A program made the position numbers and the translations under genes. A DNA stretch of 64,000 nt from Bacillota bacterium (lineage in GTDB: Bacteria; Bacillota_A; Clostridia; Lachnospirales; Lachnospiraceae): NCBI GenBank assembly GCA_023443625.1, contig JAEZTQ010000045.1, positions 29,355-93,354 on the forward strand, written 5' to 3'. Position 1 is the first letter of the stretch. Every line of letters starts with the position of its first letter. Below are positions 333-31,882 of this stretch, piece by piece. Below the pieces are notes generated by a model that was given only the letters and a program-made list of their open reading frames with translations, had not been told where the DNA came from and did not search any database.

Positions 333-1868
333 CTATAATCCTAAATCTATGATTTCATAAACCTTATTCATATCCATATGTTCCCTTAAAATTTTAGCTA
401 ATTTATCATATTGTTGCTCCTTATAAGCTTCATAGGAGAGCACCATTTGTTCTTTAGGATCCAAACCCTTTCTGGTATATAAGAGGTTTGCTAACCCTAT
501 TCTCACGGACTCTGTATCAAAAACACCATGGAGATAGGTACCGCATACATTATCCTTACACATTCCATCTAGTTGGTGAGATTCTAACTCTACAAAGGGA
601 TAGCAATTATCTGCCCTACCTTTATCATACGCTTCTTGTAAAGGTACTTTATTTGCAGCTTTCGTTATACCCATATGAATTTCATAGCCTTCAACTTCTG
701 CACCGGATAACAAGGAGAATTCTTGGGAAAGAGTATGAATTCTTCCTTTCACTCTGGTTCTTATTTTTTCTTCTTGGAATACTGTTGCTACAGGTAAAAG
801 CCCCATGCCTCTAATACTTTCCTGTCCTTCAACTCCATGAGGGTCGCTAATATGTTCCCCTAGCATCTGATAGCCACCACAGATACCAAAGATCAATGTT
901 CCTTTTTTTGCTTCCTGTAAAATAGTACTTTCCAGCCCATTTTGCCTCATCCACTTTAAATCTTCTATGGTATTTTTTGTACCAGGAAGTATTATCATAT
1001 CTGGTTCTCCTATTTGATATGCATGTTTGACATAACGAATGGAAACTCCCTCCAGGGTTTCAAGAGCATTAAAATCTGTAAAGTTGGATATTCTAGGCAG
1101 ATGAATCACCGCAATATCAATGATTGCCTTATTAGCCGTATACTGAAGCCTTTCAGATAAACTATCCTCATCATCAATATCAACATGCATATGAGGAACC
1201 ACTCCAATAACCGGAATTCTACATTTCTCTTCTAGCATAGCAAGGCCTGGAGTAAGTATCTTTTCATCCCCACGGAACTTATTAATGATCAGTCCTTTGA
1301 CCATCTCTCGTTCCTCATCCTCAAGGAGGGAGGTTGTACCATATAACTGAGCAAATACACCCCCACGGTCTATATCACCCACCAATAATACTGGTGATTT
1401 TGCCAGCTTTGCCATCCCCATATTTACTATATCTTCACTTTTTAGATTAATCTCTGCTGGACTACCCGCTCCTTCGATTACGATAATATCATACTCCCTA
1501 TCTAAGGCCTCATAAGCTTTCATAATATCTGGAATTAGTTTCTTCTTATGTTTAAAATAGTCTATAGCGTGCATATTGCCGCGTACCTCTCCATTGACAA
1601 TTACCTGGGACCCCATATCTGTCGTGGGTTTTAATAATATGGGATTCATTAGAACAGACGGTTTAATGCTGCAAGCCTCCGCTTGCATTACCTGTGCTCG
1701 CCCCATTTCTAATCCTTCCTCTGTTATAAAGGAGTTTAGGGCCATATTCTGAGATTTAAATGGTGCTACTTTATAGCCATCCTGTTTAAAGATACGACAC
1801 AGTCCGGCTACTATAAAGCTTTTTCCTGCATTTGACATAGTTCCCTGTATCATGATTGATTTAGCCAT
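333..1868 (-). CDS. cbiP: Cobyric acid synthase CbiP/CobQ
   Basis: Glutamine-dependent amidation of the b, d, e and g side chains of adenosylcobyrinate a,c-diamide to give cobyric acid. The 511-residue length is normal for the family. The N-terminal domain opens with a P-loop variant, [19 protein letters not shown] (about residues 9-27). The C-terminal class I glutamine amidotransferase domain has the nucleophile elbow FGICGGYQ near residue 328 and a His in YLHGVF near 446. The ATG at 1868 has GGAGG seven bases upstream. The start lies inside the 3' end of cobD (19-bp overlap), which suggests translational coupling. Confidence 0.95.
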
Positions 1869-2974
1869 CTCTTATCCTCCGAACTTGTAACTTCATTGTC
1901 TAGTTCTTTCTTCACACTAACAGTACATGCCTTCCCTTTGAGTGCTTCTTTCCAAATCTGTATCAGCTTTTCATTCTCATTATGTCCCCTAATTGCTATT
2001 CGGTAATACCCCTTTTTTAACCCAAGGTAATTACTACAATCTCTTATCAAAATTCCTTTCTTTCTTAACATTTCTCCTAATTCCTCCGAGGCTTGAAAGA
2101 AGATAAAATTAGCACTTGCTCCATAAGTTTTTACTACTAATCCTTGCTTTAACTCTGTTAATAGATACTTTCTTTCTATCTTCATTAATCTGTGTGTCTT
2201 GGCAAGATAAACTTTCTCCTTTAAGGCTGCGATACCCGCTGCTTCGGCAGGAACTGATATACTCCAGGGTTGGCACACTTCCTTCATTTTAGAAAGTATA
2301 CCCTTATTCCTTGTAAAACCGTATCCTAATCGTAATCCTGGCATTCCATATATCTTAGTAAAGGCTTTCAATAAGAATAATGTATTAAATTGTGAGACAT
2401 ATTCTTTCATAGAAAATTCCTCTGGAGATTGTATAAAATCTATAAAACATTCATCTAATACCAACAAAGTATTTTGCTTTTCACAACGCTGGGCTATTTG
2501 CAGCAAAAGCCTTTGATCTATTAATTGTCCTGTAGGATTATTGGGATTGCACAAAAACACCATATCTATGTCGTCCTCTAAATAAGTTAAAAAATCCTCT
2601 TGCAGGATAAACCCCTTCTCCTCCTCTAATGTATAGTAATTGATTTCACAATCTACACTGCGAAGGGCCTGCTCATATTCTGCAAAGGTTGGAGCAAGAA
2701 GTAGCGCCTTTCTTGGTTTTCTAGCCAAACAAACCATAAAAATTAATTCCGAAGCTCCGTTGCCGCATATGATATATTCCTTAGGAATATTCTCTGCTTC
2801 TTCTATGGCACTAAGTAACAATTCATATTCCACATCTGGATAATGTATACACCTAGATATGGCTTCTTGTGCAGCTTTTTTTGCAGAAGGAGGAATGCCC
2901 AAAGGGTTTATATTAGCTGAATAATCCAACTTAATATTATTGCGATAAATATCTCCACCATGTTTATGTTTCAT
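1850..2974 (-). CDS. cobD: Threonine-phosphate decarboxylase CobD-like aminotransferase
   Basis: PLP enzyme of fold type I. In the cobalamin pathway CobD decarboxylates L-threonine O-3-phosphate to (R)-1-amino-2-propanol phosphate, the linker of the nucleotide loop. Evidence: the N-terminus HGGDIYR...[15 protein letters not shown] is typical of Cob[10 protein letters not shown] is the aminotransferase substrate/cofactor loop; the PLP lysine motif [13 protein letters not shown] lies near residues 205-218. Length 374 is slightly longer than the usual 360, from a polar C-terminal tail that runs into cbiP. Histidinol-phosphate aminotransferase is the main alternative, but the operon context favours CobD. 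Confidence 0.88.
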
Positions 2975-3012
2975 CCTATTACCCCATTGTTTTTAAGACT
3001 TATTATATAGAT

Positions 3013-3990
3013 TTAAAAGGAAAGAAAGCTCTTCATTATAAGAATTTTTAATGATACCAGCAGCACCATCCCTAAAAGACTAGATACATAAAGTAACCTA
3101 TTCGCTATTTTAATATCCTCATAATGTATCTCACGCAATGGATTTCCAATCCCTTTCTTTTTTACTAGTTTCCCAAAATAATAAGCATCTCCAGCCAAGG
3201 CAATGCCTAATGCTCCTGCACAGACTGCTTCTGTATGAGCGGAATTAGGGCTGGCATGGTTATAGCGATCCCGTTTATAAATGCCATATGCCTCCTTCCA
3301 ATTAAGTCTCAAGACAAAACTTGCGCCCATCATTAAAAATGCTGATATTCTAGCTGGTATGTAATTAAGCACATCATCAAGGCGAGCTGCTGCCCATCCG
3401 AAATATAAATATCTATCATTCTTGTAACCTATCATAGAATCCATGGTATTAATGGCTTTATAGAAGAAGCCTCCCATTACCCCAAAAAGGATCATATAAA
3501 TCATAGGGGCAATAATACCATCTGAGGTGTTTTCGGCTACGGTTTCAACAGCCGCCTTTGCTACACCTTCTTGGGTTAACTGATCCGTATCTCGTCCCAC
3601 AATCATGGATACCGCTTGTCTCGCTTTTGATAAATCCCCTTTTTTTAATTCATGGTATACCTTCATACTCTCAACCTTCAGTGATTTAGTAGCCAATAGT
3701 TGGTAGCACATAATACACTCTAATCCAAATCCCAAGTAGGGATGAATATGATAGCCAAGAGTTAACAGACTATAGGAAATGCCTAGTGTAAAAAGAAGCA
3801 CAAGAAAAATCAGCCCTACTCCTGCCAGCCTTTCTCCCTTTTTCGTTTTAGGAAATACTTTTCTTAAAAACTTTTCAAATAAATTAATAGAGCTACCTAT
3901 TCCCTGTACTGGGTGCCATATCCCATGGGGATCTCCAACCACTAAATCAATCAAATATCCGATGCAAAGCGCCAATAACGATTCCTTCAT
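3013..3990 (-). CDS. cbiB: Adenosylcobinamide-phosphate synthase CbiB
   Basis: Integral membrane enzyme joining cobyric acid to aminopropanol phosphate. The protein starts MKESLLALCIGYLIDLVVGD and continues DPHGIWHPVQGIG, the family's N-terminal signature. The DTDQLTQEGVAKAAVETVAEN region and NTMDSMIGYKNDRY are also hallmarks. Several hydrophobic segments fit a membrane protein. The frame is open for another 39 codons upstream to 4107, but I place the start at 3990: GAGGAGAAGG lies just before this ATG and the resulting 325 residues match the family. It overlaps the 3' end of the phosphatase gene by 44 bp. Confidence 0.93.
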   Translation of the reverse strand: MKESLLALCIGYLIDLVVGDPHGIWHPVQGIGSSINLFEKFLRKVFPKTKKGERLAGVGLIFLVLLFTLGISYSLLTLGYHIHPYLGFGLECIMCYQLLATKSLKVESMKVYHELKKGDLSKARQAVSMIVGRDTDQLTQEGVAKAAVETVAENTSDGIIAPMIYMILFGVMGGFFYKAINTMDSMIGYKNDRYLYFGWAAARLDDVLNYIPARISAFLMMGASFVLRLNWKEAYGIYKRDRYNHASPNSAHTEAVCAGALGIALAGDAYYFGKLVKKKGIGNPLREIHYEDIKIANRLLYVSSLLGMVLLVSLKILIMKSFLSF

Positions 3991-4531
3991 CCTTCTCCTC
4001 ACACTTTCCCAAATACCCATTACCATTCTCAATATTCCAATGAAAATAATCCTTATGGGGATAAGAATATGCGTCCAATATGGACATAATTGTTCCTCCA
4101 TGAACAACGAAAGCTATTTTTTTCTTACCCTCTTTTCTGGCCTTTTGGAGGATAGTTTTAAAAGCACCCACACATCTGCGTTGAAATTCCCTCTTGCTTT
4201 CACCCTCCATAAGCTTCAGCTCACAATAACTATCAATCCATTGCTGATAGATGGGATTCCCATTTAATTCATGATAATTTTTATATTCAAAAATACCAAA
4301 GTCCATTTCTTTAAAATCTGTTATTATCTCATAATCCATACCCGGATAGAGCAGCTGACAGGTTTCTAAACACCTCTTCATTGGACTAACATAAAGAAGA
4401 TCTACCTCTGGCAATGTTTTAAATTTTAAATCCTCTATGGAGTCCTGTAGAATTCCTTCATCCGTGCTTCCTACATATCTTCCCTCCAAATTACCCTTGG
4501 TTTTTCCATGGCGAATGAGATATAGCTCCAC
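3947..4531 (-). CDS. cobC: Histidine phosphatase, likely alpha-ribazole phosphatase CobC
   Basis: Member of the phosphoglycerate mutase-like histidine phosphatase family. The phosphoacceptor motif is at the very N-terminus (LIRHGKTKGN, His8); a second histidine is in FVVHGGTIMS near residue 144, and EMDFGIFE supplies the acidic residue. In this context it probably dephosphorylates alpha-ribazole 5'-phosphate or adenosylcobalamin 5'-phosphate. Length 194 is typical. Its ATG overlaps the end of the CobU-like gene by one base and its 3' end overlaps cbiB, so the genes are tightly coupled. The specific substrate is inferred from neighbours. Confidence 0.85.
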   Translation of the reverse strand: MELYLIRHGKTKGNLEGRYVGSTDEGILQDSIEDLKFKTLPEVDLLYVSPMKRCLETCQLLYPGMDYEIITDFKEMDFGIFEYKNYHELNGNPIYQQWIDSYCELKLMEGESKREFQRRCVGAFKTILQKARKEGKKKIAFVVHGGTIMSILDAYSYPHKDYFHWNIENGNGYLGKCEEKDEGIVIGALHRIFD

Positions 4532-7433: not shown

Positions 7434-8807
7434 CTACTTATTATCCCTATACCTTAAGCATGCTTCAATCAATTGATAGGCTGCCTCCACATTCCCGTAT
7501 AAATACAGATGTGGGAAACCTGCCAGTACATTCTCCTTCCCATGAATACAAGGATAAGTCCTATTACCGATTGGTTTTGTAGCCATGAAATCATCTCCTG
7601 GCATCCCACTCTCATAATAATGAAATTCGTGAGCCCGAAGATGGCTCCTTGGCTCTCCTATAACTGAAGTACACAAGCTTTCTAACTCAATGTAACCAAA
7701 TCTCTGTAGCCTATGTGTTTTATAGGCTTTGGCCTGGATAACGCCCACCATAGGATAACTCACGCCCTGAGCATCTTCTAATTCATCATGTAGGTATAAG
7801 AAACCACCGCATTCTCCGATACAGGGCATACCATCTACTACCGCTTTCATTATACTTGCCCTCATTGATTTATTGCTCGATAGCTCCTTCGCATGTAGTT
7901 CAGGATATCCTCCGCCAAAGATCAGTCCATCTAATCCTTTTGGTAGTTCTTTATCTTTTATGGGTGAAAAATAACATAACTCTGCCCCCATTTGCTTAAG
8001 CAAATCCAAATTATCTTCATAATAGAAGGAAAAGGCCTCATCCCTTGCTATTCCAATTCGGACTGTATGTTTACAATAAGGGATTTTAGGTATCTCATAC
8101 TCTAGTACAGGGGCACTCTTTGCTATTTCTATAATTTTATCTAAGTCCAAGGTCTCTTCGAATACCTTTGCCAGTGAAATAATCTTTTCTTTAAATCCTT
8201 CCACTTCATCCGGTGATATTAATCCAAGATGTCTACTATCAATGGATAACTCCTGTAATTTTGGAACATATCCCAGTACAGGTATTTTTAACTCCTCTTC
8301 CACTTTACCTTTGATTGTCTCATAAAACATAGGGGACATATGGTTTAGAATAATTCCCTTGATATTACTGTCTTTTCTATAGGATAGGAATCCCAAAAGG
8401 GTGGCAATTAAAGAAAGACTCATTCCTTTTCCATTCAAAATAAGTATCGTTGGACTTTGGGTTATGGAAGCAATATCATAGGTACTAGCCTTGGTAGATA
8501 CTCCTCCTAAACCGTCATAATATCCCATTACACCTTCTATCACTGATAGATCCATATCAAAGGAAGTATTAGCAAAAAGATATTTCACTATATTCTCAGG
8601 TGCTAAATAAGAATCCAAATTTCTTGATTTAGTCCCTATCACTTTGCTGTGAAACATGGGGTCTATATAATCTGGACCACATTTAAAGGAAGCCACTTCT
8701 AATCCCCTGTTTTTTAAGGCCTGTAATATTCCACAGGTGATGGTAGTTTTGCCACTGCCACTGGATGCTGCTCCAAATACAATTCTTGGTATTTGTATCT
8801 GCTTCAT
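7434..8807 (-). CDS. cbiA: Cobyrinate a,c-diamide synthase CbiA
   Basis: Glutamine-dependent amidation of the a and c carboxylates of cobyrinate. The N-terminal P-loop is GAASSGSGKTTITCG, followed by KCGPDYIDPMFH and NLDSYLA. The C-terminal amidotransferase domain has GLIFGGGYPELHA and the nucleophile CIGECGGFLYL near residue 329. An upstream in-frame ATG exists at 8819, but GAGGA sits correctly for the ATG at 8807 and too close for the other, so I use 8807 (457 residues). It is separated from cbiJET by about 85 bp, one of the larger gaps in the operon. Confidence 0.93.
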   Translation of the reverse strand: MKQIQIPRIVFGAASSGSGKTTITCGILQALKNRGLEVASFKCGPDYIDPMFHSKVIGTKSRNLDSYLAPENIVKYLFANTSFDMDLSVIEGVMGYYDGLGGVSTKASTYDIASITQSPTILILNGKGMSLSLIATLLGFLSYRKDSNIKGIILNHMSPMFYETIKGKVEEELKIPVLGYVPKLQELSIDSRHLGLISPDEVEGFKEKIISLAKVFEETLDLDKIIEIAKSAPVLEYEIPKIPYCKHTVRIGIARDEAFSFYYEDNLDLLKQMGAELCYFSPIKDKELPKGLDGLIFGGGYPELHAKELSSNKSMRASIMKAVVDGMPCIGECGGFLYLHDELEDAQGVSYPMVGVIQAKAYKTHRLQRFGYIELESLCTSVIGEPRSHLRAHEFHYYESGMPGDDFMATKPIGNRTYPCIHGKENVLAGFPHLYLYGNVEAAYQLIEACLRYRDNK

Positions 8808-14884: not shown

Positions 14885-15075
14885 TATCCATATCAAACTT
14901 AGGCAGGTATTCTGACTTATAGATCAACATACATTTTCGTCTTCCCAGATTACTCCAGTGACTGATTATTTAAAATCTAGAAAATGTACTCCTTACATAC
15001 AGCAATGGGATTGTGCAGGATTCTCACCTGGCTTCCCTATTAATTCCACAACGTATACGCCTGGAAACCTAAATT
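14885..15075 (-). ncRNA. Cobalamin riboswitch upstream of cbiD
   Basis: Read on the minus strand, the leader carries AGCCAGGTGAGAATCCTGC, matching the conserved GGTGxxAATCC core of B12 aptamers. Then come GTCACTGGAG...GGGAAGACG, matching GCCACTGxxxxxxGGGAAG, and finally AGTCAGAATACCTGCC at 14902-14917, which fits the B12-box consensus. A transcription terminator follows at 14754-14787, so this is probably an off-switch that ends transcription when cobalamin binds. Aptamer edges are approximate. Confidence 0.93.
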
Positions 15076-15082
15076 CTTTCTC

Positions 15083-15111
15083 AGTATACTATGATAATTT
15101 CATACTGTCAA
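15083..15111 (-). promoter_or_regulatory. Sigma-A promoter of the cobalamin operon
   Basis: Minus-strand TTGACA (15106-15111), 17-bp spacer, TATACT (15083-15088). Near-consensus, with transcription expected to start around 15076, just at the 5' side of the aptamer. Confidence 0.88.
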
Positions 15112-18078: not shown

Positions 18079-18167
18079 ATTATCTTTCCTCAGCTCTTAT
18101 TATTCGTATTAATGTAGTTTAAAATACGTCAATTTATATATTGCCCTTTTATTACTGTAATGTCAAG

Positions 18168-18327
18168 AACAAAGAGTTTCGTTTACGAAACTCTCGCGCC
18201 GCAAAGGCGTCGCGTTTATGCGACATATTTCCATACTTTTGCGTGCGCATGCTTCACGCAGTGATTTTTTATTTCATAGGGTTATAATTTAACACTGACC
18301 GTAACGAGAATTTTCCTATGAAATAAG
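18168..18327. repeat. Modular intergenic hairpin repeat, copy 1
   Basis: A B module at 18168-18250 (starts AACAAAGAGTTTC, ends GCGTGCGCAT) is nearly identical to 31455-31536. It contains several short stems, including GAGTTTCGT/ACGAAACTC. A C module follows, bounded by an exact 12-bp inverted repeat TTATTTCATAGG/CCTATGAAATAA. It fills the gap between the HAD gene and the ABC gene. Confidence 0.85.
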
Positions 18328-18328
18328 A

Positions 18329-18366
18329 AATCCGCATTTCAACTACATAAGCTGACATTGCGGATT
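18329..18366 (-). terminator. Terminator after the degenerate ABC ATPase
   Basis: AATCCGCA/TGCGGATT stem directly downstream of the ATPase stop at 18379, followed on the minus strand by TTCTTATTT. A plausible end for the third LytTR cassette transcript. Confidence 0.6.
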
Positions 18367-18378
18367 ATCATACACTAA

Positions 18379-19059
18379 TTATGAAATTCTTCGATCTTCT
18401 ACTATTTCTCCATCCTTTAGCCTAATAATATGATCAACAAAAAGATCAATCTCAGAATCATTGGTAACCATAATCAAAGTCTTCTTATGATAATATACCA
18501 TGTTGAGCAAGAAATCTAAAAGCTCCTTATTCATCTGGTAATCGTAATTATCAGTAAAGTCATCCACTAATATTATATTCGGCTTATTGATCAGAGCTCT
18601 TGCATAAGTTACACAGGCTAGTTGATTTTTGGCTAATTGCTTAGGATAATGATTTAATAATTCTCCTATGTTTAACCATTCAATAAGCTCCTGATAATAG
18701 GTTTTATCATACTTCTTGCGAGCTAATATAGAGGGAATAATTATATTTTCATGAACTGTCAATTCTGGGATTAAGCTATCATTTTGAAATAAGTATCCAA
18801 TTTCATTTCTTCTCATTTTGGCTAGTTGATCGTCAGTAAAATTTGTTATATTTTTATGATTAATATACACCTCTCCACTAGTAGGGCGTTCAAGTCCTCC
18901 TAGTATGCGCAGCAATGTGGTCTTACCTGATGCTTTTGATCCACTAATTGCAACGCACTCCCCTTTTTTGATTTCAATATTACAATTAACAATGGCTCTG
19001 ATTAAGTTATCATCCTTTTGAAAAGACTTATTCAAAGCTGTGATCTTACATATCGGCAT
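18379..19059 (-). CDS. Degenerate LolD/FtsE-like ABC ATPase
   Basis: A 226-residue ABC nucleotide-binding domain of the MacB/LolD/FtsE type. Walker A is intact (SGSKASGKTTLLR) and the Q-loop is YLFQN. Three catalytic elements are altered: LSGGQ is replaced by LAKNQ, the Walker B end is IILVDDFTDN (catalytic Glu to Asp), and the H-loop is MVTNDSE (His to Asn). It can probably bind ATP, but hydrolysis is doubtful. The start at 19059 was preferred over 19080 by length. It lies downstream of the third LytTR-box promoter, peptide ORF and hairpin, and presumably pairs with the two FtsX-like proteins encoded upstream. It could be a regulatory or sensory ABC rather than a pump. Confidence 0.85.
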   Translation of the reverse strand: MPICKITALNKSFQKDDNLIRAIVNCNIEIKKGECVAISGSKASGKTTLLRILGGLERPTSGEVYINHKNITNFTDDQLAKMRRNEIGYLFQNDSLIPELTVHENIIIPSILARKKYDKTYYQELIEWLNIGELLNHYPKQLAKNQLACVTYARALINKPNIILVDDFTDNYDYQMNKELLDFLLNMVYYHKKTLIMVTNDSEIDLFVDHIIRLKDGEIVEDRRIS

Positions 19060-19131
19060 AAATCTTACCATCCTTACCAAGCTTATGACTGTTAGATAAT
19101 ATGTAGGCTACCTTTCTCTTGCTTCACTAGG

Positions 19132-19174
19132 CACAGAATGCTTGAATTGATCTTCTCAATCCAAGCATTCTGTG
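19132..19174 (-). promoter_or_regulatory. Conserved hairpin in cassette C
   Basis: CACAGAATGCTTG pairs with CAAGCATTCTGTG, extended inward by TTGA/TCAA. The same hairpin lies at 20027-20060 and 20920-20953, each time between a micropeptide ORF and the downstream transporter gene. It lacks a long U-run, so an attenuator, leaky terminator or RNA processing site is more likely than a full stop. Confidence 0.75.
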
Positions 19175-19249
19175 TACTATCACTAATGAACTGGTAAAGT
19201 ATTTATTCCCCAATAGATACTTTCAACGCTAGAAATTATTTGCCATATA

Positions 19250-19288
19250 TTATCTGTCGGTATCAAGAAAATCCTGATATATTCTCAT
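19250..19288 (-). CDS. Decayed micropeptide ORF, cassette C (12 aa)
   Basis: Reads MRIYQDFLDTDR then TAA. It aligns in frame with the cassette B peptide from its second residue (IYQDFLDTDR against MYPDLLEIFR). The equivalent start is ATA instead of ATG, and an AAA codon after Arg is replaced by TAA, cutting off the basic end. The ribosome binding site is weak (AAGG). I read it as a degenerated copy, though translation from the ATG two codons upstream is possible. Confidence 0.45.
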   Translation of the reverse strand: MRIYQDFLDTDR

Positions 19289-19324
19289 ACTACCTTAAGA
19301 AAGAACAACCTTGATTACAAGCTA

Positions 19325-19394
19325 TTTATAGCATATCAACATAATTGCTTCAATAAGAGGGGACATGAACGTCGCATTTTGCTGTATGAACGTC
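19325..19394 (-). promoter_or_regulatory. LytTR-box promoter of cassette C
   Basis: Minus-strand direct repeats GACGTTCATA (19385-19394) and GACGTTCATG (19364-19373), 21 bp apart, then 33 bp to TATAAA (19325-19330). The spacing of two helical turns and the GTTNA core fit AgrA/PlnC-type LytTR sites. The gene for a LytTR regulator is 3.2 kb upstream. Confidence 0.8.
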
Positions 19395-19403
19395 GACTGT
19401 CAA

Positions 19404-19994
19404 TTACCCTTCCTCATAAAACATAGGTTTCTCAGATAAAAAATGAGATATGGACATTCTACGAATTCCTATATCAAGATAAATACCAATGGATATAATA
19501 ATACAGCAAGTAACTATAACTGCCATATAATATGTGGTAGATGAAGCAATCCATTCAATGGTGTGATTTACCAAATTGAAACTTCCTAGGTATTCAACAA
19601 TAAAACATATCAGTAAATAACCTCCTAATAATCCTATGGATGTCGAAATGATTATCAAGAAAAATGCCTGAACTAATAATAAGGTTCTCATTGTACTCTT
19701 TGTTGCTCCTAATCCACTTAAAATATTAAAATCACCCACACTGGATTTCATAATATTATAATACTGGCTAAGTAAATAAGTAATGCCTCCGATAAAAAAA
19801 ACTGTTCGTAAGCTGAGAAATATATATCGCAAATTCGAATATATATCATCCGTGACAAATACAAGTATATTATCCATATATATTATAGTGACTGCCATCA
19901 ATATATAGGCCACAATATTGGATAGGGCTACAAAAATATAGTTCTTATAGTTTCGCATAAATATAAGTTTAGAATAGGTAGGTATTAAAGACAT
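19404..19994 (-). CDS. Short FtsX-like membrane protein, copy 1
   Basis: 196-residue membrane protein with about four hydrophobic segments (roughly residues 20-42, 58-82, 102-138, 156-178). GLGATKSTMRTLLLVQAFFL followed by a glycine-rich hydrophobic stretch resembles the FtsX/MacB permease core, LGAsrrqlrrLLLLEA. It lacks the large extracytoplasmic domain of full FtsX permeases. The ATG at 19994 follows AAAGGA; an in-frame extension to 20024 overlaps the upstream hairpin region. About 19 of 196 residues differ from the copy at 20297. It lies in LytTR cassette B, downstream of a 15-residue peptide ORF. Probable partner of the degenerate ATPase; substrate unknown. Confidence 0.8.
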   Translation of the reverse strand: MSLIPTYSKLIFMRNYKNYIFVALSNIVAYILMAVTIIYMDNILVFVTDDIYSNLRYIFLSLRTVFFIGGITYLLSQYYNIMKSSVGDFNILSGLGATKSTMRTLLLVQAFFLIIISTSIGLLGGYLLICFIVEYLGSFNLVNHTIEWIASSTTYYMAVIVTCCIIISIGIYLDIGIRRMSISHFLSEKPMFYEEG

Positions 19995-20026
19995 AAGCTT
20001 CCTTTCTGCTAATTCCATAGGCACAA

Positions 20027-20060
20027 AATGCTTGGAATTGATGATCTCAATCCAAGCATT
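20027..20060 (-). promoter_or_regulatory. Conserved hairpin in cassette B
   Basis: AATGCTTGGA pairs with TCCAAGCATT around a short interior segment. It ends about 33 bases before the permease ATG at 19994 and sits after the peptide stop, as in the other two cassettes. Confidence 0.75.
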
Positions 20061-20124
20061 CTATGTATTATAACAAGAATTGGTAAAGTATTTATTCCCC
20101 AATAGATACTTTCATCGTGAGTAA

Positions 20125-20172
20125 TTATTTTCCAAATATTTTTCTAAAGATTTCAAGAAGATCTGGATACAT
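20125..20172 (-). CDS. Micropeptide, cassette B (15 aa)
   Basis: Reads MYPDLLEIFRKIFGK followed by TAA. A strong GGGAGG lies seven bases before the ATG, and a LytTR-box promoter starts the unit. Hydrophobic residues at 5, 6, 8, 9, 12 and 13 and charged ones at 4, 7, 10, 11 and 15 fit an amphipathic helix with a basic end. There is no signal peptide, double-glycine leader or cysteine, so it would be secreted unprocessed or act inside the cell. Similar in pattern to the cassette A peptide; both carry D-[LF]-L-E-I. Confidence 0.72.
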   Translation of the reverse strand: MYPDLLEIFRKIFGK

Positions 20173-20216
20173 TTTTTATCCTCCCTTATAAAAAGAACAA
20201 CCTTGGTTACAAGCTG

Positions 20217-20287
20217 TTTATAGCATATAACCAAAGTTGCTTTCAATAAGGTAGGACATGAACGTCGATTTTAAGTGCATGAACGTC
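20217..20287 (-). promoter_or_regulatory. LytTR-box promoter of cassette B
   Basis: Minus-strand GACGTTCATG at 20278-20287 and again at 20257-20266, 21 bp apart. Then 34 bp to an extended -10, TGC-TATAAA (20217-20222). There is no good -35 hexamer, as expected for an activator-dependent promoter. The -10 lies inside a palindrome with CCTTGGTTA/TAACCAA arms. Confidence 0.83.
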
Positions 20288-20296
20288 GACTGTACT

Positions 20297-20887
20297 CTAC
20301 CCTTCCTCATAAAACATAGGCTTCTCAGATAAAAAATGAGTTAAGGACATTCTGCGAATTCCTATATCAAGATAGATACCAATGGATATTATAATACAGC
20401 AGGTAGCTATAGCTGCCATATAATATGTAGTAGAAGAAGCAATCCATTCTATGGTATGATTTACCATATTATAGTTTCCAAGATATTCTACGATGAAACA
20501 AATCAGTAAATAGCCTCCTAATAATCCTATGGCTGTCGAAATGATTATCAAGAAAAAAGCCTGAACTAATAATAAGGTTCTCATTGTACTCTTTGTTGCC
20601 CCTAATCCACTTAAAATACTAAAATCACCCACACTGGATTTCATAATATTATAATACTGGCTAAGCAAATAAATAATGCCTCCGATAAATAACATAGTTC
20701 GTAAGCTGATAAATATATATCGCAAGTTCGAATATATATCATCAGTGACAAATACAAGTACATTATCCATATATACTGTGGTGACTGCCATCAATATATA
20801 GGCCACTATATTAGATAGTATTACAAAAATATAGTTCTTATAGTTTCTCATAAATATGATTTTAGAATAGGTACGTATTAAAGACAT
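20297..20887 (-). CDS. Short FtsX-like membrane protein, copy 2
   Basis: 196 residues, about 90% identical to the protein at 19404-19994, with the same four hydrophobic segments and the same GLGATKSTMRTLLLVQAFF core. Differences are mostly conservative (Ile/Val/Leu) and cluster in the membrane segments, which suggests both copies are under selection. The ATG at 20887 has AAAGGA upstream. It is the transporter gene of cassette A, downstream of the 16-residue peptide. Two half-size FtsX-like chains plus an ATPase could make a heterodimeric permease, but whether they are the partners of the ATPase is inference from context. Confidence 0.8.
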   Translation of the reverse strand: MSLIRTYSKIIFMRNYKNYIFVILSNIVAYILMAVTTVYMDNVLVFVTDDIYSNLRYIFISLRTMLFIGGIIYLLSQYYNIMKSSVGDFSILSGLGATKSTMRTLLLVQAFFLIIISTAIGLLGGYLLICFIVEYLGNYNMVNHTIEWIASSTTYYMAAIATCCIIISIGIYLDIGIRRMSLTHFLSEKPMFYEEG

Positions 20888-20919
20888 AAGCTTCCTTTCT
20901 GTTAATTCAATAGTCACAA

Positions 20920-20953
20920 AATGCTTGGAATTGATGTTCTCAATCCAAGCATT
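20920..20953 (-). promoter_or_regulatory. Conserved hairpin in cassette A
   Basis: AATGCTTGGA/TCCAAGCATT stem, about 33 bases before the permease ATG at 20887, in the same position as in cassettes B and C. A second small stem, AAAGTAT/ATACTTT (about 20981-21006), lies between it and the peptide stop and is also repeated in cassette B. Confidence 0.75.
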
Positions 20954-21046
20954 CTATGTATTATAATTAGAATTGGTAAAGTATTTATTCCCCAATAGAT
21001 ACTTTCGTTGGAAGAATCTTAATCTTGTAAAGTAAAATTGTCCCAA

Positions 21047-21097
21047 TTATTTTTTACGAAATAAACTCATTAAAATTTCCAAAAAATCTCCAGCCAT
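21047..21097 (-). CDS. Micropeptide, cassette A (16 aa)
   Basis: Reads MAGDFLEILMSLFRKK followed by TAA, with GGGAGG about nine bases before the ATG. Hydrophobic positions 5, 6, 8, 9, 12, 13 and polar positions 4, 7, 11, 14-16 give a clean amphipathic helix with a cationic tail. In style it resembles short phenol-soluble modulins or delta-lysin (MA-D start, KK end), but it is shorter and I claim no homology. It is directly downstream of LytTR boxes and next to the kinase gene, so it could be the signal, an effector, or a leader peptide for the downstream gene. Confidence 0.75.
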   Translation of the reverse strand: MAGDFLEILMSLFRKK

Positions 21098-21138
21098 ATT
21101 AATTAACCTCCCTATGTAAAAACCTTGGTTACAAGCTG

Positions 21139-21208
21139 TTTATAGCATATAACCAAGGCTTCATCAATAAGGTCAAACATGAACGTCGATTTTTCCTGCA
21201 TGAACGTC
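21139..21208 (-). promoter_or_regulatory. LytTR-box promoter of cassette A
   Basis: Minus-strand GACGTTCATG at 21199-21208 and 21178-21187, 21 bp apart, then 33 bp to TGC-TATAAA (TATAAA at 21139-21144). The boxes begin six bases after the stop codon of the histidine kinase gene. The -10 lies within a CCTTGGTTA/TAACCAAGG palindrome (21123-21158). Confidence 0.84.
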
Positions 21209-21213
21209 TATAT

Positions 21214-22527
21214 TTAATTTAATCCTCTGTTTTTCATATGTATATCCACTATGAACTCATTATTCTCTATTATGAAATTATAGGATCCCATATAATTTTT
21301 CACCCTGTTAATTACATTCTTAACACCGAATCCATGCAGGCTTTTATCCTTCTTTGAGGTAATAAGAACGCCATTTATAACATTTACATCACTCATAATA
21401 GGATTTTTTACATTTATAAATAAATCATCTTTATAGCTTGTAATTTTTACATCAATATAGTGTTGCTTATCATCTTTTGACTCTATTCGCTGTATAGCTT
21501 CCACTGCATTATTTATAATATTGGCAAATATAACACATAAGTCCATAGGAGCCACATAAAGTTTCTCAGGAAAACCACCTATCAATCTGATAATAATATT
21601 TTCATTCTTATATCTACTTTGTATATCATTAAGTATTGCATTTACAATATCATTACCACAATCAAATAAATCCTCTTGATTATTTGAAGATTCAATTAAT
21701 TCATGTATATATTGCTGCAATTCCCATTGCTTACCTGATTGATATAAACTATATATACATGTTAAATGGTTCTTCATCTCATGTCTGATACTATGGATTT
21801 CCTTTTGTTTTTCATTAACCAATGTATAATACTTCTGTTGTGACTCAATTACGTTTTGGCTGATTAATGAAAGGGCTTTGTAATTATCTCTAGATTCTAT
21901 AATGATAATCATCATAAAGCAAACCAAACAATAGGTGACTACAATAATAATAGTTATTACAATCAAAGCTCGCCTTCCAGCATCCGATATATTACTATTT
22001 AAACTTACTAATAGTGCTGATATAAAAAGCATTCCTGTTCCTATCCCTAGAAAAAGCAATGCATAAATACTTTTTGATATTTTAATCTGTATATTATTCT
22101 TTCTTCTCTTTTTAATAAATACTAAAATTATTAAAGGTATATTAATAAACATCATATAGAAATAACGAGAAATCCCCTCATTTCCCGGGTACATATTTAA
22201 CGTTGTTCCAATTCCTATAATGCAAGTATCTATGAATAAAATAAGAGCATATGCCAGTAAAGCATTAGTTAATTTTTTTATGTATCTACCTTCAAACCAA
22301 AAGCATATAGCCATAAATAACATGCACATCGTAACCAAAGTAACAGTCTCCGTACTGTATTTACGAAACAACCCCGCCAAAATCAATAAAAAAATTTGAA
22401 AAAAACCTGTTATGAGGTAAATACTTTTTCTTTTATTTGGCTTGAAGTTAAAAAACCCCCATAATATTAACCATATTTTTATTAAATCTGTCAAATAGCT
22501 ATAAAAAATATGTATTATATCACTCAT
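21214..22527 (-). CDS. GHKL histidine kinase (AgrC/HPK10 type)
   Basis: 437 residues: about six hydrophobic segments in residues 1-220, then a cytoplasmic kinase core. The phosphoacceptor is in IHSIRHEMKNHLTCIYSLY (about residue 250). The N-box is VIFANIINNAVEAIQRI and the glycine loop is LHGFGVKNVINRVKNYMG, typical of the HATPase_c_5 group found with LytTR regulators such as AgrC and ComD. The gene lies 15 bp after the regulator gene, so they form a two-component pair. The multi-span sensor suits a peptide ligand. No agrB/agrD genes are nearby; the micropeptides of the next cassettes are the obvious ligand candidates. Confidence 0.9.
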   Translation of the reverse strand: MSDIIHIFYSYLTDLIKIWLILWGFFNFKPNKRKSIYLITGFFQIFLLILAGLFRKYSTETVTLVTMCMLFMAICFWFEGRYIKKLTNALLAYALILFIDTCIIGIGTTLNMYPGNEGISRYFYMMFINIPLIILVFIKKRRKNNIQIKISKSIYALLFLGIGTGMLFISALLVSLNSNISDAGRRALIVITIIIVVTYCLVCFMMIIIIESRDNYKALSLISQNVIESQQKYYTLVNEKQKEIHSIRHEMKNHLTCIYSLYQSGKQWELQQYIHELIESSNNQEDLFDCGNDIVNAILNDIQSRYKNENIIIRLIGGFPEKLYVAPMDLCVIFANIINNAVEAIQRIESKDDKQHYIDVKITSYKDDLFINVKNPIMSDVNVINGVLITSKKDKSLHGFGVKNVINRVKNYMGSYNFIIENNEFIVDIHMKNRGLN

Positions 22528-22542
22528 AAAAACATATTCTCC

Positions 22543-23241
22543 TTATCTCGCATTCCTTCTACGGTACTCTTTACAGGCTTTTTTTAACTTACCAATCTGG
22601 CGAATTGACACCTCTACCTTTTCTCCATTATCAAGGAGTACTTCCTTGTTAATCTCATCAATAAAAGCCAAATTTACAATATAAGCTTTATGAACACGAA
22701 AGAAATCTCCTATATTTAATATCTCTTCCCACTCATTCATGGTTGTAGTGCTTTCAAATGTTCCCCTTTGCGTTCTAATAAGGGTATATCGATTAACATA
22801 TTCAATATATATAATATCCATCAATTTGATGAAAAGAATCTCTCCATCCTTGCTCACAATGGTTTTACAGTTTTTGGTTAAATCTCCTACAGCTTCTGTT
22901 AAAGCTCTTATGCATTCCATTTCATTTACAGGCTTTAACAGATAACGAAAAGCCCTCACCCTATAGCCTGCCTGTATAAACCCCTTATAGCCCGTAAGAA
23001 ATATGATAATCATACTTTCATCAAATTCACGAATCTTCTCTGCTGTCCTTAAACCATTTAATCCCTTCATCTGAATGTCTAAAAACAGTATATCAATTGG
23101 TCTTTGGCATGAAATTAGCTCTTCCCCAGAGGCAAAAGTAATTATCTCTATTTGTGATAAATTTGATATCTTAAATTTATTACATATTCGAAGGATTTCA
23201 TCTCGAATAATTTCTTCATCATCACATATTCCAATTAGCAC
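22543..23241 (-). CDS. LytTR-family response regulator
   Basis: Receiver domain at residues 1 to about 125: acidic pocket ICDDEE, phosphoacceptor Asp in DILFLDIQMKG, Thr in FLTGYKGF, Lys in RYLLKPV. LytTR DNA-binding domain from about 135 (DGEILFIKLMDIIYIEYVNRYTLIRT ... FFRVHKAYIVNLAFIDEI). I start at the GTG at 23241 (232 residues): AGAGAGG lies seven bases upstream, and the protein then begins directly with the receiver strand LIGICDDEE. A TTG at 23259 is the alternative. It probably binds the GACGTTCATG repeats in the three downstream cassettes. Its own promoter shows no such repeats. Confidence 0.92.
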   Translation of the reverse strand: MLIGICDDEEIIRDEILRICNKFKISNLSQIEIITFASGEELISCQRPIDILFLDIQMKGLNGLRTAEKIREFDESMIIIFLTGYKGFIQAGYRVRAFRYLLKPVNEMECIRALTEAVGDLTKNCKTIVSKDGEILFIKLMDIIYIEYVNRYTLIRTQRGTFESTTTMNEWEEILNIGDFFRVHKAYIVNLAFIDEINKEVLLDNGEKVEVSIRQIGKLKKACKEYRRRNAR

Positions 23242-23280: not shown

Positions 23281-23309
23281 ATTTTAACAATCGTATTTTG
23301 TTTCGTCAA
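23281..23309 (-). promoter_or_regulatory. Promoter of the two-component operon
   Basis: Minus-strand TTGACG (23304-23309), 17-bp spacer, TAAAAT (23281-23286). It lies 40-70 bp upstream of the regulator start. No LytTR boxes are visible here, so positive autoregulation is not supported by sequence. Confidence 0.65.
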
Positions 23310-31445: not shown

Positions 31446-31582
31446 ATATCCTATAACAAAGAGTTTGCCTTGCAAACTCTTGCGCCGCAAAAGCGTCGCA
31501 TTTATGCGATATATTTCCATACTTTTGCGTGCGCATCCTAATTTTTTTATTTTATAGGATGCTCTTTCCTATAAAGTAAAAA
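31446..31582. repeat. Modular intergenic repeat, copy 3, inside the leuS leader
   Basis: B module 31455-31536 (AACAAAGAGTTTG to GCGTGCGCAT), nearly identical to 18168-18250. The C module GCGCATCCTAATT...TATAGGA...TCCTATAAA...AAAAACC (31531-31586) is nearly identical to 62987-63041. It lies between the T-box terminator and the leuS ribosome binding site and would be transcribed in the mRNA. Confidence 0.88.
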
Positions 31583-31850
31583 AACCTCCCGTCTCACATA
31601 AAGAGACGAAAGGTTAGCTTCCGTGGTACCACTCTGTTTCGTATACAAATCAATATAACTATAAATTCTCTAATATGAAAATAAACAGTCTATAATTTGC
31701 TGCGCACTTTATTTCGATAACGGGAATCCCGCTCTGACCTACTTAACTTCAATCAGAGAGCTCAAAGGCGAGTTGGGAGTCTGTTGCTACTGCCTTCCAC
31801 CACCCGGCAGCTCTCTGTAAGCCCATTGTCTCTTATTACTCCTTGTCAAT
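31583..31850 (-). ncRNA. T-box leader of leuS
   Basis: The minus-strand T-box core AGAGTGGTACCACGGAAGC lies at about 31617-31635. The terminator (31583-31615; AACCT/AGGTT outer pairs, CGTCTC/GAGACG inner pairs, then seven T) follows. The 5' part holds a stem I with AGAGAGCT/AGCTCTCT at its base and GGGTGGTGGAAGGC-type loops. CTC at 31770-31772 is a possible leucine specifier, but I cannot confirm its position in the loop. Uncharged tRNA-Leu should promote readthrough into leuS. Confidence 0.92.
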
Positions 31851-31882
31851 GCTTCTTTATTATTTAATTCATAATACTATTT

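What the first reader, a model, noticed from the sequence alone, without database searches (positions are those of the whole stretch)
18379..23241. LytTR two-component system with three repeated promoter-micropeptide-transporter cassettes
Seen: a LytTR regulator and GHKL kinase, then three consecutive cassettes with the same order: paired GACGTTCATG boxes, extended -10, 12-16 codon ORF, AATGCTTGG hairpin, transporter gene (FtsX-like, FtsX-like, ABC ATPase). Known: LytTR regulators with HPK10 kinases control peptide signalling or peptide toxins (Agr, plantaricin, pneumococcal systems). Inferred: the micropeptides are exported or sensed by this locus as a compact quorum, toxin or immunity system without AgrB/D. 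I know of no described system with this layout.
Basis: partly seen in the sequence, partly recalled or inferred. Interest (0 to 1): 0.93.

Follow-up and report, generated by a model that had tools for sequence, protein, structure and literature searches.

The report
Micropeptide module with degenerate ABC motor
In some Herbinix-type bacteria a sensor-regulator gene pair sits beside tiny open reading frames for 15-20-residue peptides and a membrane complex whose motor protein has lost two key catalytic motifs, so the complex is predicted to bind or sense the peptides rather than pump them, which would be an undescribed way for bacteria to signal with, or protect themselves from, their own peptides.

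Summary
On the minus strand a LytTR regulator and GHKL kinase precede two complete cassettes (box pair, promoter, micropeptide ORF, two RNA hairpins, 196-aa FtsX-like permease). A third cassette is decayed: its peptide ORF is broken and its permease is probably reduced to a 3' relic before the ATPase.

Eight of 34 genomes of one genus carry an orthologue with one H1-H2 element; six of them keep regulator-kinase-peptide-permease-ATPase complete. A 15-20-codon ORF with GGAGG stands at the same place in 10 of 11 cassettes, against 44 of 22,000 shuffles. Peptide sequences vary; architecture does not.

All 7 orthologues lack the LSGGQ signature and switch histidine but keep Walker A. So do 38 of the 72 closest database proteins, forming one clade; the other 34 keep both motifs. 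The permease is predicted to have the FtsX/BceB/HrtB core without an extracytoplasmic domain. A plain exporter is therefore unlikely.

Best reading: a LytTR-controlled, likely self-sensing micropeptide module with a non-pumping FtsX-type receptor or immunity complex. The LytTR part is a variant of a known kind; the pseudo-ABC part is new to me. Export, sensing and activity are untested.

The parts
22543..23241 (-). LytTR response regulator (GTG start)
   Evidence: PF04397 and PF00072; receiver phospho-acceptor D seen in 9 of 9 loci
23281..23309 (-). predicted promoter of the regulator-kinase genes (TTGACG-17-TAAAAT), no box pair
   Evidence: consensus scan, itself not above shuffles; a TTGACG-led copy is seen upstream of the regulator in L001 and L002
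21214..22527 (-). GHKL-type sensor kinase, 6 predicted TM segments
   Evidence: PF14501; hydropathy
21178..21207 (-). cassette 1 LytTR box pair ACGTTCATG-12-ACGTTCATG
   Evidence: 18 of 18 consensus positions
21139..21167 (-). cassette 1 promoter TTGATG-17-TATAAA, extended TGC
   Evidence: 10 nt after box 2
21120..21161 (-). inverted repeat around the -10 (terminator-like)
   Evidence: 12-bp arms, 1 mismatch, T-rich after; its 18-nt loop is outside the limits of the terminator scan, which did not call it
21047..21097 (-). micropeptide 1 MAGDFLEILMSLFRKK
   Evidence: ORF with GGAGG; position conserved
20978..21005 (-). RNA hairpin H1, cassette 1
   Evidence: covarying stem
20920..20953 (-). RNA hairpin H2 (AATGCTTGG), cassette 1
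20297..20887 (-). FtsX-type permease 1 (196 aa, 4 TM, no extracytoplasmic domain predicted)
   Evidence: PF02687; model and fold
20257..20286 (-). cassette 2 LytTR box pair
20217..20246 (-). cassette 2 promoter TTGAAA-18-TATAAA
20198..20239 (-). inverted repeat around the -10, cassette 2
20125..20172 (-). micropeptide 2 MYPDLLEIFRKIFGK
   Evidence: ORF with GGAGG
20085..20112 (-). RNA hairpin H1, cassette 2
20027..20060 (-). RNA hairpin H2, cassette 2
19404..19994 (-). FtsX-type permease 2 (90% identical to permease 1)
19364..19393 (-). cassette 3 LytTR box pair (17 of 18)
19325..19353 (-). cassette 3 promoter TTGAAG-17-TATAAA
19250..19288 (-). decayed micropeptide ORF (12 codons as read; start of the homologous frame lost, early stop)
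19196..19223 (-). RNA hairpin H1, cassette 3
19137..19169 (-). RNA hairpin H2, cassette 3
19068..19104 (-). probable relic of a third permease 3' end
   Evidence: 75.7% over 37 nt to the L001 permease end; weak
18379..19059 (-). degenerate ABC ATPase: Walker A kept, LSGGQ replaced by LAKNQ, catalytic E replaced by D, switch H replaced by N

Best explanation
This is a micropeptide locus in which a LytTR regulator and GHKL kinase sit next to box-pair promoters, leaderless 15-20-residue peptide ORFs, an FtsX-type permease and an ATPase lacking the ABC signature motif and switch histidine, and the kinase likely reads the peptide, directly or through this complex, which is predicted to bind the peptide without pumping it. 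How it would work, step by step. (1) The regulator-kinase genes have their own box-free promoter (sequence; predicted). (2) The active regulator likely binds the paired ACGTTCATG boxes, 10 nt upstream of a TTG-17/18-TATAAA promoter, and turns on peptide, permease and ATPase (geometry shown; binding inferred). (3) A terminator-like inverted repeat around the -10 would keep read-through from the upstream gene out of the peptide ORF (structure shown; function inferred). (4) Hairpins H1 and H2 between peptide and permease would let the peptide be made at a different level from the membrane proteins (conservation and covariation shown; function inferred). (5) The peptide, mostly an amphipathic helix of phenol-soluble-modulin character, likely acts at the membrane, as signal, as antimicrobial, or both (inferred). 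(6) The permease and pseudo-ATPase, coded with it, would serve as receptor or immunity complex (inferred from lost catalytic motifs, kept Walker A, and FtsX/Bce-type kinship). In the window the cassette was multiplied; two peptide-permease pairs survive and diverge.
Against: No expression, translation, binding or activity data. The kinase sensor is not specially fast-evolving: sensor-to-catalytic divergence ratio 1.40, against 1.53 in a control kinase, so 'pherotype' diversification is not shown. The same boxes stand before other genes in 3 of 8 genomes, and one agr-like locus in G002 has a near match; AgrB is present in 4 of 8 genomes, so another signal could drive the kinase. Peptides of G006 and G033 are not significantly amphipathic. 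The peptide ribosome site is predicted paired (mean probability above 0.5) in 10 of 11 leaders, with a guessed 5' end. How a leaderless peptide would leave the cell without a working pump is open. Loss of motifs predicts, but does not prove, loss of hydrolysis; one ATPase missed by the scan (L112, read by eye) has YSYGQ with a histidine kept, so a changed signature alone is not unique to this clade. G027 lacks the ATPase gene, so it is dispensable there. Foldseek alone gave no permease match below E 0.001.
Confidence: 0.45

Rival explanations
1. PSM-like effector with its own exporter: the LytTR system, driven by another signal (such as an Agr-type cyclic peptide), switches on a cytolytic or surfactant micropeptide, and the permease-ATPase pumps it out and protects the producer, as agr, PSMs and Pmt do in Staphylococcus.
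For: AgrA binds psm promoters directly and Pmt exports PSMs and protects the producer (PMC5080381, passages). AgrB in 4 of 8 genomes, near the module in G027. Duplicated, diverging peptide ORFs with one kinase in the window. Other box-led genes include a protein with a signal-peptide-like start (by eye) followed by an ABC ATPase gene.
Against: The ATPase lacks the signature motif and switch histidine in 7 of 7. No AgrB detected in G006, G007, G009, G033 (completeness unknown). G009, whose kinase sensor is 87% identical to G027's, has no AgrB next to the module.
Confidence: 0.25
2. Leader-peptide attenuator: the short ORF is a cis-acting leader whose translation, with hairpins H1 and H2, tunes permease expression; the peptide itself has no function.
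For: The ORF stands between promoter and structured RNA just upstream of the permease; its sequence varies while position and length are kept. Predicted pairing of the permease ribosome site is 0.27-0.80 across the 11 leaders, so some masking is possible.
Against: H1 and H2 stems appear in the predicted minimum-energy fold of all 11 cassettes and start 4-91 nt after the stop codon, outside the ORF; H2 is followed by only 2-5 T in 8 nt. I did not test alternative folds. Cassette 3 keeps promoter, H1 and H2 without an intact ORF. Amphipathicity beyond composition.
Confidence: 0.12
3. Small membrane subunit: the micropeptide is a regulatory subunit of the permease complex and never leaves the cell.
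For: Each surviving peptide ORF is paired with its own permease copy in the window; the peptides are short, hydrophobic and leaderless.
Against: Mean pairwise identity of the peptides is 24.5%, unusually low for a fixed subunit; peptide ORFs 1 and 2 match at 32 of 48 aligned nt, their permeases at 539 of 591.
Confidence: 0.13

Closest known systems
Staphylococcus agr-controlled phenol-soluble modulins with the Pmt ABC exporter (PMC5080381, passages read)
   Same: LytTR-type regulator, leaderless short amphipathic peptides, peptide promoters under direct regulator control, dedicated ABC-type membrane complex (leaderlessness and helix properties of PSMs recalled)
   Different: Pmt has two ATPase and two membrane subunits and exports; here one permease type without a predicted extracytoplasmic domain and a degenerate ATPase; peptides are 15-20 aa and coded with the complex; AgrB not found at the locus except in G027
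LytTR and GHKL bacteriocin/pheromone loci (ComCDE, Blp, Pln; ubericin K cluster PMC8515946, passages read)
   Different: no double-glycine leader and no C39 peptidase exporter at the locus; peptide encoded leaderless
BceAB/PsdAB peptide-handling ABC systems
   Same: permease profile and model match the N-terminal FtsX-like part of PsdB/BceB; transporter and two-component system together
   Different: no large extracytoplasmic domain, 196 aa rather than about 640 aa, ATPase degenerate, kinase is polytopic GHKL
FtsEX and other type VII ABC complexes (PMC11627006, abstract and passages)
   Same: FtsX-type fold; [quoted passage not shown]
   Different: FtsE keeps the signature motif and switch histidine and FtsX has an extracellular domain; both missing here

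Membership tests
Agr quorum-sensing system | AgrB processing protease (PF04647) at the locus | tested here: not met
   No AgrB among 17 window proteins scanned (not all of the 55 ORFs of 140 aa or more). In related genomes AgrB in 4 of 8, near the module only in G027
Agr quorum-sensing system | polytopic GHKL kinase with LytTR regulator | tested here: met
   PF14501, PF04397, PF00072; 6-7 hydrophobic segments
ComCDE/Blp/Pln pheromone systems | precursor with double-glycine leader and C39-peptidase ABC exporter | tested here: not met
   All 10 intact ORFs encode 15-20 aa without room for a leader; the locus ATPase shows ABC_tran but no C39 domain
ComCDE/Blp/Pln pheromone systems | direct-repeat LytTR boxes upstream of peptide promoter | tested here: met
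   10 of 11 cassettes have the pair at 15-18 of 18 positions, G033 at 11 of 18
Phenol-soluble modulins | short leaderless amphipathic alpha-helical peptide | tested here: inconclusive
   leaderless and short in 10 of 10; combined amphipathicity p 3e-5 but 7 of 10 single peptides not below 0.05
Phenol-soluble modulins | secreted, membrane-active | not testable with these tools
   needs mass spectrometry and lysis assays
Type VII (MacB/FtsX/Bce) ABC complexes | FtsX-type four-helix membrane core | tested here: met
Type VII (MacB/FtsX/Bce) ABC complexes | extracytoplasmic (porter) domain | tested here: not met
   model all-helical, no strand and no insert between the first two long helices (moderate confidence)
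Type VII (MacB/FtsX/Bce) ABC complexes | ATPase with LSGGQ/E signature and switch histidine | tested here: not met
   absent in 7 of 7 orthologues and 38 of 72 relatives
Leader-peptide attenuator | alternative terminator or ribosome-site masking tied to translation of the ORF | tested here: inconclusive
   only minimum-energy folds and pairing probabilities of 11 leaders were computed, no alternative folds; no U-tract of more than 5 T in 8 nt after H2

The most novel reading that the evidence does not exclude
A transporter turned receptor: a whole clade of FtsX-type ABC complexes has lost its porter domain and ATP-hydrolysis motifs and now works as a non-pumping, ATP-binding receptor or immunity complex for a leaderless micropeptide coded in the same cassette, relaying the peptide's presence to a LytTR/GHKL kinase. 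It would be a pheromone or self-toxin circuit made of a 15-20-residue unprocessed peptide, with no protease, leader or pump.
Probability: 0.3. Interest if true: 0.88.

Novelty: new variant of a known kind. Interest (0 to 1): 0.73.

Why it matters
Genes this short (15-20 codons) are normally invisible to annotation. Here one is held in place by conserved boxes, promoter geometry and two covarying RNA hairpins across eight genomes and the window, which makes a clean test case for translated micropeptides. The ATPase clade offers a natural experiment on what an ABC complex does once it has lost its hydrolysis motifs. If the complex reads or neutralises the peptide, it is a minimal peptide-communication or immunity circuit with no processing step, easy to move into a laboratory host.

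Tried and rejected
H-type pseudoknot at the GGGG element: my first reading by eye; rejected because the G006, G027 and G033 sequences show a simple covarying hairpin. Known RNA family: none at gathering score around the locus or for this element in the whole window; the low-score hits are far below their gathering scores. NCBIfam: no family for the kinase and none over cut-off among the hits shown for the permeases, the regulator and the ATPase. Pherotype-style sensor hypervariability: my hypothesis, not supported once a control kinase was measured. Agr system as a fixed part: rejected because AgrB adjacency is seen in G027 only. Mobile element: permease absent from plasmid and phage collections at E 1e-5. 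Wider spread: 28-mer of H1 with up to 3 mismatches in 1 of 397 family genomes, H1-H2 pattern in 1 of 392 order genomes (both hits are G002), and a looser pattern in 9 of 117 relatives, where the ninth (G049) continues in unrelated GC-rich sequence and is taken as chance (its left arm was not read). Permease profile in 397 family genomes: 150 genomes matched; among the rows listed only G002 has a short frame, the rest frames of 475 aa or more; many rows were not listed and at most 8 candidates a genome were scored. Yet ATPase relatives in the protein database (38 clusters, one named Mobilitalea sp.) suggest that the clade is wider than those genomes. Defence library: weak ATPase hits and one weak kinase hit only. 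Papers: searches listed no paper that I recognised as describing this layout or a signature-less FtsX-type ATPase; the library holds open-licence papers only, and I saw listings plus passages of three papers. At 3 mismatches the box-pair search is noise (33 matches against 59 in the reversed control); for the regulon only sites with at most 1 mismatch are counted, about 0.05 expected.


Full report
WHAT IS THERE. Reading the minus strand from 23241 to 18379 gives a LytTR response regulator, a GHKL kinase, then two complete units of the form box pair - promoter - micropeptide ORF - hairpin H1 - hairpin H2 - FtsX-like permease, then a third, decayed unit in front of an ABC-type ATPase. The luxS gene lies upstream on the other strand; a HAD hydrolase, trpS and a D-2-hydroxyacid-dehydrogenase-like gene (the last two named by eye) follow. 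The 12-codon ORF of cassette 3 is not a third peptide but a broken copy: in the frame that aligns with cassette 2 the start is lost and a stop follows ten codons. A 37-nt stretch just before the ATPase resembles the 3' end of the L001 permease (75.7%, weak), so cassette 3 probably once had a permease.

RELATIVES. The single genome-contig scan with the permease alignment found two Herbinix MAG loci, L001 and L002. A search of the 34 held genomes of that genus gave 15 with some FtsX match, of which 8 (G001, G002, G005, G006, G007, G009, G027, G033) hold the short permease behind a GHKL kinase; the other 7 match only in frames of 621 aa or more (loci read). The H1-H2 pattern occurs once in each of exactly these 8 genomes, never in the other 26, and never in the reversed control. 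Outside the genus no further copy was found in samples of 397 family genomes (28-mer) and 392 order genomes. With one H1-H2 element per genome, the window's multiplication appears to be its own. The order regulator - kinase - peptide - permease - ATPase - HAD is complete in the window and in G001, G002, G005, G006, G007 and G033. G027 has no ATPase gene between permease and HAD; the G009 contig ends inside the permease. luxS is seen upstream in the window and five of these loci, trpS downstream in the window and six; the rest run off the stretch or were not read (G027 has no luxS in the stretch read).

THE PEPTIDES. W1 MAGDFLEILMSLFRKK; W2 MYPDLLEIFRKIFGK; L001 MSTMSLDIIDIIVKFFGG; L002 MVSTMGVDFLDPFFKWLFG; G007 MTTCSASDIIALLKKLFGG (or one Met earlier); G005 MVNTGINILDDFIEWLFGRP; G006 MGGSIFFAYYWLSKLFS; G033 MEAYASSTWLYKLLLWLTGK; G027 MNTLFLKNVYDFMMWFIYG; G009 MNTLILKNIYDFMMWFIHR. 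An ATG ORF of 15-20 codons behind GGAGG, upstream of H1, is present in 10 of 11 cassettes; in shuffles 44 of 22,000. Helical moment against own-composition shuffles: p below 0.05 in 3 of 10, combined p 3e-5, with the caveat that some peptides are related. Between window cassettes 1 and 2 the ORF matches at 32 of 48 aligned nt, the promoter part at 91 of 108, the H1-H2 part at 113 of 119, the permease at 539 of 591 with dN 0.046 and dS 0.29. The short spacer between stop codon and H1 is more diverged still (6 of 11, 29 gap columns), so the ORF is less conserved than promoter, RNA element and permease, but not than every noncoding stretch. In predicted folds with a guessed 5' end the peptide ribosome site is more than half paired in 10 of 11 leaders, which may mean low or regulated translation.

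CONTROL ELEMENTS. The boxes ACGTTCATG-12-ACGTTCATG are followed after 10 nt by TTGNNN, then 17 bp (18 in Wc2 and G005) and a TATAAA-like -10; this holds in 10 of 11 cassettes, G033 being divergent with boxes at 11 of 18. The -10 lies inside an inverted repeat that changes in sequence but stays paired in 9 of 11 cassettes (for example perfect 20-bp arms in G006) and is followed by T-rich sequence: a terminator-like structure with the next promoter's -10 in its loop. In Wc3 it is largely lost, and in L002 imperfect; there the script picked other pairs. The consensus terminator scan, limited to loops of 3-8, did not call it. H1 (tip UAUUGGGGAAUA) pairs in 87% of cells with 5 pairs changed on both sides, none of 500 shuffles reaching its covariation; H2 92%, 4 pairs, 1 of 500. 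Both appear in the minimum-energy fold of all 11. No Rfam family matches them. Two metagenome permeases (P0007, P0008) carry N-terminal extensions that read, by eye, like translated H1 or H2, so the element probably extends to loci I could not fetch.

REGULON. With at most one mismatch the box pair occurs 9 times in the 8 genomes, 5 at the module itself and 4 elsewhere (about 0.05 expected by chance): before a partly masked gene in G001; a 163-aa protein with a signal-peptide-like start (by eye), followed by an ABC ATPase gene and a further 310-aa ORF, in G002; a membrane-protein-like gene with an Rce1-like (PF02517, CPBP-type) protease gene downstream in G002; and a 344-aa protein with a signal-peptide-like start in G007. 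In G002 an agr-like operon has a pair at two mismatches. The module's own pairs in G006, G009 and G033 are weaker (15, 16 and 11 of 18). The regulator therefore probably has other outputs, and its boxes may be shared with another regulator.

THE ATPASE. In all 7 orthologues the LSGGQ signature reads LAKNQ, LTINQ, LTINQ, LTDHQ, LTTNQ, LRNEQ or IPNGK, and the switch histidine is N, R, E or Q. Walker A is intact in 7 of 7 and the catalytic glutamate present in 6 of 7, D in the window. The other ABC ATPases that a motif scan caught in the fetched loci and the window, 16 of 16, are canonical; the scan is not exhaustive, and one ATPase it missed (L112) has YSYGQ but keeps a histidine. Among the 72 closest database proteins at E 1e-40 (the window's own and several orthologues are among them), 38 lack both the signature and the histidine at its place, with GK[ST] of Walker A in 38 of 38 and the catalytic glutamate in 31 of 38, while 34 of 34 others have SGG[QE] and the histidine. 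One of the 38 (P0048) has LSGDQ, and one (P0034) a histidine one place later. A tree of 74 rows puts the 38 plus the G006 and G033 proteins on one side of a branch with support 100/100; sampling is centred on the window protein. Because histidine and Walker motifs of one subunit work with the signature of the other, pairing with a canonical ATPase would also leave no complete site (my reasoning from the roles given in PMC11627006, passages). So the complex is predicted to bind ATP but not to hydrolyse it normally. The permease has four hydrophobic segments (three over threshold in G006) and a predicted all-helical fold (pLDDT 71) whose VIA matches at ranks 1-36 are FtsX, HrtB, BceB, Lol, MacB and kin (Foldseek alone no better than E 0.04), and a profile match to the start of PsdB, without the extracytoplasmic domain that the review calls a conserved type VII feature.

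RATES. Mean pairwise identity over the seven core loci (six for LuxS and TrpS): TrpS 89, LuxS 80, HAD 71, regulator 58, kinase catalytic part 53, ATPase 47.5, permease 34, kinase sensor 33, peptide 24.5. The whole module evolves fast. A control kinase in six of the genomes gives sensor 69 and catalytic 80, divergence ratio 1.53 against 1.40 for the module kinase; so the sensor is not singled out, and I do not claim pherotype evolution.

MECHANISM. Shown: gene order, conserved ORFs, box-promoter geometry, covarying hairpins, lost ATPase motifs. Inferred: regulator binding, translation, membrane action of the peptide, peptide sensing by the kinase, and receptor or immunity role of the complex. 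I prefer a self-sensing micropeptide module with a non-pumping FtsX-type complex (0.45) over a PSM-type effector with a true exporter (0.25), a small membrane subunit (0.13), or a leader-peptide attenuator (0.12).

KNOWN OR NEW. It works like agr/PSM/Pmt and like LytTR bacteriocin loci, but fails the AgrB test at the locus, the leader/C39 test, and the canonical-ATPase test. I found no description in the searches listed. The LytTR part is a variant of a known kind; the pseudo-ABC clade tied to a micropeptide is the surprising part.

Noticed in passing
L108 (G027:C77) 7614-8329, minus strand: AgrB with an AgrD-like ORF (serine in place of the ring cysteine, read by eye) lies about 1.2 kb upstream of the module's regulator in G027; the close relative G009 has no AgrB there.
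   Followed up: partly
L112 (G002:C4) 1770-4039: A LytTR box pair with promoter stands before a 163-aa protein with a signal-peptide-like start and no Pfam match, followed by an ABC ATPase gene and a further 310-aa ORF; could be a bacteriocin-type locus.
   Followed up: partly
L113 (G007:C35) 1870-3060: A box pair stands before a 344-aa protein with a signal-peptide-like start and no Pfam match over cut-off.
   Followed up: partly
window 18160-18330: Hairpin-rich intergenic stretch (several short palindromes in a row, by eye) between the ATPase and HAD genes; one palindrome has a near copy (2 mismatches) at 31495.
   Followed up: partly
window 14885-15087 and 31599-31858, minus strand: Cobalamin riboswitch upstream of cobalamin-type genes and a T-box leader upstream of a leucyl-tRNA-synthetase-like gene (Rfam; gene names by eye).
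   Followed up: no
G033:C78:10379-11875: A kinase orthologue used as a control carries one in-frame TGA in this assembly.
   Followed up: no
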